Source: Catellicoccus marimammalium M35/04/3
Lineage (GTDB): Bacteria; Bacillota; Bacilli; Lactobacillales; Catellicoccaceae
Direction: 5' to 3'
Length of the DNA: 64,000 bases
NCBI RefSeq assembly: GCF_000313915.1
Contig: NZ_AMYT01000007.1
Coordinates: 1-64,000, forward strand
Below, piece by piece: positions 44,408 through 45,956 of the stretch (the stretch's first letter is position 1; every line of letters begins with the position of its first letter). The notes under the pieces are model-generated. The model was not told the DNA's origin. It made no database searches and saw nothing but the letters and a program-made list of their open reading frames with translations. Position numbers and translations under genes: made by a program.

Positions 44408-45292
44408 ATGATAGAAAAGGATATTGCCAGTCCTTCTAGAACAAAAGAAATTTTACAACGTCATGGATTTTCATTCAAAAAAAGTCTAGGACAAAACTTT
44501 TTAACCGAACCTAATATTTTACGCCATATCGCCGCTACGGCAGAGCTAAATAAAGAGAGTCAAATTATAGAAGTTGGTCCAGGAATTGGTGCATTAACAG
44601 AACATTTAGCTCGTTCTGGAGGAGAAGTACTTGCTTTTGAAATTGATGGTCGTTTATTACCGATTTTAGAAGAAACCTTAGCTCCTTATGATAATGTCAC
44701 TGTAGTAAACGAAGATGTATTAAAAGTGAATTTGCGAGAAATTGCCAGTCAAGTATTTGATTTAGAAAAACCGATTCAAGTGGTCGCAAATCTTCCTTAC
44801 TATATTACAACGCCAATTATGATGCATTTTTTAGAGTCGGATTTACCAGTAGAAAAAATGGTTGTAATGATGCAAAAAGAAGTAGCAGAAAGAATCCAAG
44901 CTAAACCAAAATCAAAAGCTTATGGTTCATTATCGATTGCAGTGCAATATTATATGGAAGCAAGTATTGCTTTTATTGTGCCAAAAACAGCGTTTGTACC
45001 TCAACCAAATGTCGATTCTGCGATTTTGAAATTAGAACGTCGTCAACAGCCGTTAGTAGAAGTTAAAGATGAGGACTTTTTCTTCAAAGTAGTGAAGGCT
45101 GCTTTCCAATTGCGTCGTAAAACGTTATGGAATAATTTATTACATACTTTTGGTAAAGATGAAGCGACGAAAGCTTGGTTAGAACAAAGCTTATCTTTAG
45201 CAGAAATTGATCCAAAACGTCGAGGAGAAACATTATCCATTGAGGAGTTTGCTTCCTTAGCAAATCATATGTTAGAATGTAAGCAAAATTAA
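44408..45292 (+). CDS. rsmA: 16S rRNA dimethyladenosine transferase
   Basis: A 294-aa KsgA enzyme that dimethylates A1518 and A1519 of 16S rRNA. Motifs [22 protein letters not shown], and [10 protein letters not shown] (catalytic NLPY). AAAGGAGAAG is the RBS. It ends 6 bp before the folT riboswitch. Confidence 0.97.
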
Positions 45293-45297
45293 ATTAA

Positions 45298-45408
45298 GGG
45301 TAGAAAAAGAGCGTTAAGTGTCCAAAATAACGAATGAAGTTTTGGAACGAAAAATGAAAATTTGCGATTCTTTTTCGCATTCACACATTTGTGAGCCCGA
45401 TAAGGGGG
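45298..45408 (+). ncRNA. Tetrahydrofolate (THF) riboswitch upstream of folT
   Basis: Conserved blocks of the THF class occur in order: GTAGA (45300-45304), GCGTTAAGTGT (45311-45321), AACGAA (45346-45351) and GCAT (45377-45380). P2 pairs GAAAAAGA (45303-45310) with TCTTTTTC (45369-45376). P3 pairs CCAAAA (45322-45327) with TTTTGG (45340-45345). Downstream, TCACA/TGTGA (45381-45394) forms a hairpin, and CCC (45396-45398) can pair with the GGGGG Shine-Dalgarno at 45404-45408. This suggests control of translation initiation. The P1 stem is weak as I draw it. Sequence match is from memory of the class, but its place before a folate transporter gene fits. Confidence 0.88.
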
Positions 45409-45414
45409 ATTACA

Positions 45415-45933
45415 ATGAAAACAAAAAAAAGAACAAAAAAGATCGTCTTACTGGCTCTATTAGTGGCCATCATGGTCATTTTTAGTCGATTTATTTCGAT
45501 TGAAACGGAATTTTTGAAGTTTAGTTTTACTTTTATTCCAGAAGCGATCACTGGAGCTTTATTCGGTCCAATTTGGACACCTGTAGCTACGGTAGCTGCA
45601 GATTTTATTGGGATGTGGATTGCTCCAAAAGCACAATTTTTCTTTGGATTTACTCTAAATGCCTTAATTACTGGGGTTATTTATGGGTACTTTTTAGGAA
45701 AAAGAGAAGTAAAATGGTCCAATATTGCTTGGGCAGTAATTTTAAATGCAGTCATTGTGCGTTTAATTTTGACACCAATTTGGCTTTATATGATGTATCA
45801 TATGCCTTTATTAGCCATTATGCCGGTGCGTATTTTAAAACAATGTATTACTGTACCACTAGAAATTATTGCGTTAGATTTAATTTTACGTCGCTTACCA
45901 CTAGCACGTTGGCGTAAAGAAATAGATGGATAG
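45415..45933 (+). CDS. folT: ECF transporter folate-specific S component FolT
   Basis: A 172-aa membrane protein with six predicted helices (VLLALLVAIMVIFSRF first, then GALFGPIWTPVATVAADFIG). S components capture the vitamin and dock on a shared EcfAA'T module, not encoded in this window. The folate assignment rests on similarity to FolT proteins and on the THF riboswitch. The ATG at 45415 follows AAGGGGG; an in-frame start at 45391 lies inside the riboswitch. Confidence 0.9.
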   Translation: MKTKKRTKKIVLLALLVAIMVIFSRFISIETEFLKFSFTFIPEAITGALFGPIWTPVATVAADFIGMWIAPKAQFFFGFTLNALITGVIYGYFLGKREVKWSNIAWAVILNAVIVRLILTPIWLYMMYHMPLLAIMPVRILKQCITVPLEIIALDLILRRLPLARWRKEIDG

Positions 45934-45956
45934 AGAGGAGAAATCCTCTCTTTTTC
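45933..45956 (+). terminator. Terminator after folT
   Basis: GAGAGGA (45933-45939) pairs with TCCTCTC (45944-45950), GAAA tetraloop, then T's. Confidence 0.9.

What the first reader, a model, noticed from the sequence alone, without database searches (positions are those of the whole stretch)
45298..45417. THF riboswitch with apparent Shine-Dalgarno control in front of folT
Conserved THF-class blocks GTAGA, GCGTTAAGTGT, AACGAA and GCAT occur in the expected order. An 8-bp P2 (45303-45310/45369-45376) and a 6-bp P3 (45322-45327/45340-45345) can be drawn. Downstream, CCC at 45396-45398 can pair with the GGGGG ribosome-binding site, and a TCACA/TGTGA hairpin lies between, so ligand binding could hide or expose the RBS. 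No terminator is seen, so translational control is inferred. The P1 stem is unusually weak.
Basis: partly seen in the sequence, partly recalled or inferred. Interest (0 to 1): 0.6.

Follow-up and report, generated by a model that had tools for sequence, protein, structure and literature searches.

The report
THF riboswitch controlling a folate transporter
This is an ordinary member of a known class of RNA folate sensors sitting in front of a folate-uptake gene in a small lactic-acid-type bacterium; its one oddity is that the short closing stem (P1), which nearly all relatives keep, is almost absent here.

Summary
Rfam's THF model (RF01831) matches 45294-45388 at 58.3 bits (gathering 36), upstream of a FolT-family ECF S component (45415-45933). 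P2, P3, P4, the conserved junction letters and the L3-J2/1 pseudoknot (GAATG 45332-45336 / CATTC 45378-45382) are present, and 160 of 246 genomes of the order carry the family. Translational control is supported: TTCACA (45380-45385) can pair with TGTGAG (45390-45395), leaving the ribosome site more open, or TTGTGA.CCC (45389-45398) can pair with GGG.TTACAA (45406-45415), hiding it. Relatives have the same three-strand layout in different letters. 'P1 is weak' is right and understated: two isolated pairs remain, where 19 of 19 aligned relatives keep three contiguous ones. No DHPS or GTP cyclohydrolase I was detected in the genome, but DHFR was, so folT plausibly serves a folate auxotroph. Verdict: new member of a known kind, low interest. 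Ligand binding, the OFF direction and function without P1 are inferred, not shown.

The parts
45294..45388 (+). THF-I riboswitch aptamer (RF01831), whole model match
   Evidence: cmscan 58.3 bits, gathering 36
45294..45298 (+). P1 5' strand TTAAG; model partner CACAT (45384-45388); only G45298-C45384 and the isolated U45295-A45387 can pair
45303..45314 (+). P2 5' strand (pairs with 45364-45376, bulge at A45367)
   Evidence: model alignment and fold; covariation
45318..45328 (+). P3 5' strand (pairs with 45339-45348; 45320 unpaired)
45332..45336 (+). L3 strand of the pseudoknot, GAATG, partner CATTC 45378-45382
   Evidence: sequence; a complementary 5-mer found in 82 of 83 THF loci checked, G-U allowed
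45352..45363 (+). P4, AAAT-GAAA-ATTT
   Evidence: model alignment; covariation
45364..45376 (+). P2 3' strand
45377..45382 (+). J2/1 GCATTC, containing the pseudoknot strand CATTC (45378-45382)
45380..45385 (+). anti-sequestor strand A (TTCACA); overlaps the pseudoknot strand by 3 bases
   Evidence: fold with strand B about -4.1 kcal/mol
45389..45398 (+). switch strand B: TGTGAG (45390-45395) pairs with A, or TTGTGA + CCC (45389-45394, 45396-45398) pairs with C
45404..45408 (+). GGGGG Shine-Dalgarno site, 6-base spacer to the ATG
   Evidence: sequence
45406..45415 (+). sequestor strand C: GGG (45406-45408) + TTACAA (45410-45415, including the A of the ATG), pairs with strand B and hides the RBS
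   Evidence: fold about -9.6 kcal/mol; of 1000 spacer shuffles 8 reach it and 1 reaches both hairpins
45415..45933 (+). folT, folate-family ECF transporter S component, 172 aa
   Evidence: TIGR04518 149.3 bits, cut-off 60; PF12822

Best explanation
A THF-I riboswitch in the folT leader that represses translation when tetrahydrofolate is plentiful. With ligand, the L3-J2/1 pseudoknot (and what is left of P1) holds 45378-45384, so TTCACA cannot pair with TGTGAG; the freed TTGTGA.CCC strand pairs with GGG.TTACAA and hides the Shine-Dalgarno site. Without ligand TTCACA/TGTGAG forms, leaving at most CCC/GGG over the site, and folT is translated. Shown: membership of the aptamer family, the gene, and the conserved layout of both hairpins. 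Inferred: ligand binding, the direction of the switch, and that the pseudoknot rather than P1 supplies the competition here.
For: RF01831 at 58.3 bits. FolT at 149.3 bits. 160 of 246 genomes of the order over cut-off, with FolT relatives as the next gene in all plus-strand loci where a gene was called. Changes on both sides in 22 of 29 consensus pairs. Pseudoknot complementarity in 82 of 83 loci. In 87 leaders with a readable start the two competing hairpins have median energies of -9.1 and -9.6 kcal/mol; the window has -4.1 and -9.6. 1 of 1000 spacer shuffles gives both. No terminator-like site on the + strand between aptamer and folT. In solved THF-I structures the ligand-stabilised pseudoknot is the regulatory element (PMC11477058).
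Against: P1, the switch helix of described THF-I riboswitches, is nearly absent. The anti-sequestor is weaker than in relatives (-4.1 against a median of -9.1), and equilibrium folding of the tail keeps the central SD bases paired whether or not the pseudoknot strand is blocked, so switching would have to depend on the order of folding during transcription. The anti-sequestor alone is matched by 68 of 1000 shuffles.
Confidence: 0.75

Rival explanations
1. The aptamer is real but decaying: with P1 lost and the anti-sequestor weak it no longer switches well, leaving a leader with constitutively low translation in a reduced-genome folate auxotroph.
For: P1 broken at two of three inner pairs that 19 of 19 aligned relatives keep; weak anti-sequestor; tail fold keeps the RBS mostly paired in every condition tried; 1.28 Mb genome without detected DHPS or GTP cyclohydrolase I.
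Against: The conserved core letters, P2-P4 and pseudoknot are intact, and the rewritten switch strands are still mutually complementary, which drift would tend to break.
Confidence: 0.17
2. An ON switch: GGG 45298-45300 pairs with CCC 45396-45398 around the aptamer when ligand is bound, enclosing the TTCACA/TGTGAG hairpin and releasing the RBS.
For: The fold of 45250-45450 has this pairing in its lowest-energy structure.
Against: It uses G45300 of the conserved GTAG block, its enclosed hairpin competes with the pseudoknot strand, no counterpart was seen in relatives, and switching an uptake gene on when folate is plentiful makes little physiological sense.
Confidence: 0.06
3. Chance match, no riboswitch.
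For: Nothing beyond the weak P1.
Against: E 1.5e-10, the expected gene, the expected position, and widespread occurrence in the order.
Confidence: 0.01

Closest known systems
THF-I riboswitch (Rfam RF01831), folT type of Lactobacillales
   Same: Aptamer core, P2-P3-P4, L3-J2/1 pseudoknot, folT context, three-strand translational platform with sequestor and anti-sequestor
   Different: P1 reduced to two isolated pairs; switch strands in different letters (TTCACA / TGTGAG / TTACAA instead of typical GCTGC / GTAGC / TGCT); anti-sequestor overlaps the pseudoknot strand by three bases and is weaker
THF riboswitches of Periweissella, Convivina and Fructobacillus with GGTAG...GCATTCAC
   Same: Same G/A swap at the base of P1 as the window (GGTAG with GCATTCA, instead of AGTAG with GCATTCG)
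   Different: They keep a paired P1 (GG/CC or CAG/CTG)
THF-II riboswitch (folE motif)
   Same: Same ligand, translational control
   Different: Two-helix architecture, Gram-negative bacteria, before folE (PMC9881143); the window matches THF-I

Membership tests
THF-I riboswitch (RF01831) | Covariance-model score above the gathering score | tested here: met
   58.3 against 36 bits
THF-I riboswitch (RF01831) | P2, P3 and P4 around a three-way junction with conserved GCGTTAAGTG and ACGAA | tested here: met
THF-I riboswitch (RF01831) | Long-range pseudoknot between L3 and J2/1 | tested here: met
   GAATG/CATTC, 5 bp; complementary in 82 of 83 loci
THF-I riboswitch (RF01831) | P1 helix closing the aptamer (in the Rfam model, but outside the conserved binding core) | tested here: not met
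   One inner G-C plus one isolated U-A; three contiguous pairs in 19 of 19 aligned relatives. The whole-model score passes clearly without it, so I keep the family name for the aptamer and mark the member as atypical; P1-based switching is not claimed
THF-I riboswitch (RF01831) | Located before a folate transport or synthesis gene | tested here: met
   folT, TIGR04518 149.3 bits
THF-I riboswitch (RF01831) | Binds THF or other reduced folates | not testable with these tools
   Needs in-line probing, SHAPE or calorimetry
Translational (RBS-hiding) expression platform | Mutually exclusive hairpins, one of them hiding the Shine-Dalgarno site, conserved in relatives | tested here: met
Translational (RBS-hiding) expression platform | RBS accessibility depends on the aptamer state | tested here: inconclusive
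   Equilibrium folds with and without the pseudoknot strand blocked hardly differ; kinetic folding not modelled
Transcription-terminating expression platform | Terminator hairpin with U run between aptamer and gene | tested here: not met
   None on the + strand between 45388 and 45415

The most novel reading that the evidence does not exclude
A functional THF-I riboswitch that has lost its P1 switch helix and passes ligand control directly from the pseudoknot to the anti-sequestor strand, which overlaps the pseudoknot strand by three bases.
Probability: 0.3. Interest if true: 0.4.

Novelty: new member of a known kind. Interest (0 to 1): 0.17.

Why it matters
It is an ordinary riboswitch annotation, useful mainly because this lineage appears to depend on folate uptake. 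If it proves to switch without P1, it would separate the role of the pseudoknot from that of P1 in THF-I gene control, which solved structures treat as coupled.

Tried and rejected
Close relatives of this species were sought by protein in genome contigs (none found) and by family (only this genome is held), so P1 loss could not be checked within the lineage. A class-wide pattern search is void: its spacing was wrong by one base and it did not match the window itself. The earlier strict pattern is usable, and none of the loci it found continues as GCATTCACA; its hits in Thalassolituus, Lampropedia, Chloroflexi and Chitinophagales look like chance pattern matches. A transcription-terminator platform was considered and rejected. 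SD-accessibility figures used wrong SD bounds for the window (AAGG instead of GGGGG); one search replaces them. One region (L158) was fetched with useless coordinates. In one search fourteen loci failed the orientation test; twelve were viewed, of which eleven keep three or more P1 pairs and one (L144) is shifted in register; L088 and L115 were not examined. L017 and L024 were read on the wrong strand, which leaves Watson-Crick P1 pairs countable. L153 is a register shift (its P1 is CAG/CTG). The primary THF-I structure papers (PMC7981257, PMC3169164) are not held.

Full report
Observation. The Rfam search of the whole window gives two matches over gathering score: a tRNA at 46-118 and RF01831 (THF) at 45294-45388 on the + strand, 58.3 bits, gathering 36, E 1.5e-10, full model length. 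The aptamer match starts one base after the stop codon of rsmA (44408-45292; TIGR00755 273.5 bits), and the next gene, 45415-45933, is a folate-family ECF S component (TIGR04518 149.3 bits). No promoter-like site lies between rsmA and the aptamer in the simple scan, so the leader may be part of an rsmA-folT transcript (inference).

Anatomy. P2 is 45303-45314 with 45364-45376, P3 45318-45328 with 45339-45348, P4 45352-45355 with 45360-45363 closed by GAAA. L3 carries GAATG (45332-45336), complementary to CATTC (45378-45382): the THF-I pseudoknot. A complementary 5-mer is found in 82 of 83 loci checked, with G-U allowed, as GAATG/CATTC, GGATG/CATTC, GGATG/CATCC and a few others. In a 20-sequence alignment 22 of 29 predicted pairs have changes on both sides that keep the pairing.

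P1. The model pairs 45294-45298 (TTAAG) with 45384-45388 (CACAT). Only G45298-C45384 and the isolated U45295-A45387 can pair. In the alignment the other 19 sequences keep all three inner pairs, in CG, AU, UA and GC versions; the window is the only one broken at the second and third. Over the 113 loci oriented, only two others have fewer than two contiguous inner pairs: L127 (one mismatch but four pairs in all) and L153, a register shift. So the remark that P1 is weak is right, and P1 is close to absent.

Expression platform. In typical relatives the strand after the pseudoknot (GCTGC) pairs with a downstream GTAGC as anti-sequestor, or AGCA.CTC pairs with GAG.TGCT around the Shine-Dalgarno site as sequestor. 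The window has the same layout in other letters: TTCACA (45380-45385) / TGTGAG (45390-45395), or TTGTGA.CCC (45389-45398) / GGG.TTACAA (45406-45415). The energies are -4.1 and -9.6 kcal/mol, against medians of -9.1 and -9.6 over 87 leaders, the window included. When the spacer bases were shuffled, 68 of 1000 reached the first energy, 8 the second and 1 both. There is no terminator between aptamer and gene, so control is most likely translational. In the window the anti-sequestor overlaps the pseudoknot strand by three bases, so the pseudoknot itself can compete with it; in typical relatives the overlap is with P1. Equilibrium folding of the tail keeps the central SD bases paired with or without the pseudoknot strand blocked, so the switching step rests on homology and on a presumed order of folding, not on these energies.

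Direction. THF-I riboswitches act through pseudoknot-dependent P1 stability (PMC11477058) and control folate transport and synthesis genes in Firmicutes (PMC9881143). I expect OFF with ligand; this is inference from homology and physiology.

Biology. The genome (1.28 Mb, 23 contigs, one THF riboswitch) has no match to the pterin-binding/DHPS family (PF00809) or GTP cyclohydrolase I (PF01227) and does have DHFR. Folate uptake followed by reduction is therefore plausible. The genome resembles the published Catellicoccus marimammalium draft in size (1,290,194 bases, PMC3569323), but the window is 34.9% GC against 42.0% stated there, so that identity is only a guess.

Conclusion. A genuine, slightly atypical THF-I riboswitch with a conserved translational platform; the class and its folT context are known. 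Interest is low; the near-absence of P1 is the one point worth a bench test.

Noticed in passing
G000 (whole genome): No match to pterin-binding/DHPS (PF00809) or GTP cyclohydrolase I (PF01227), but DHFR present: probable folate auxotrophy.
   Followed up: partly
45391-45414: A GTG-start reading frame in phase with folT begins inside the switch hairpin, 8 codons before the ATG; the ATG at 45415 with GGGGG before it is the more likely start.
   Followed up: no
44408-45414: rsmA stops at 45292, one base before the aptamer match, with no promoter-like site between: rsmA and folT may be co-transcribed.
   Followed up: no
45932-45951: Terminator-like hairpin with a T run directly after folT (pattern scan only).
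   Followed up: no
L162-L188 (Lactobacillaceae loci): Periweissella, Fructobacillus and Convivina THF riboswitches share the window's G/A swap at the base of P1 (GGTAG with GCATTCA) but keep P1 paired.
   Followed up: partly
L156 (G025, reverse strand): The folT leader of a relative with a 3.1 Mb genome has the THF 5' half but no GCATTC at the usual distance (an insertion or decay of the 3' half); several other genomes of the same genus also score low.
   Followed up: no
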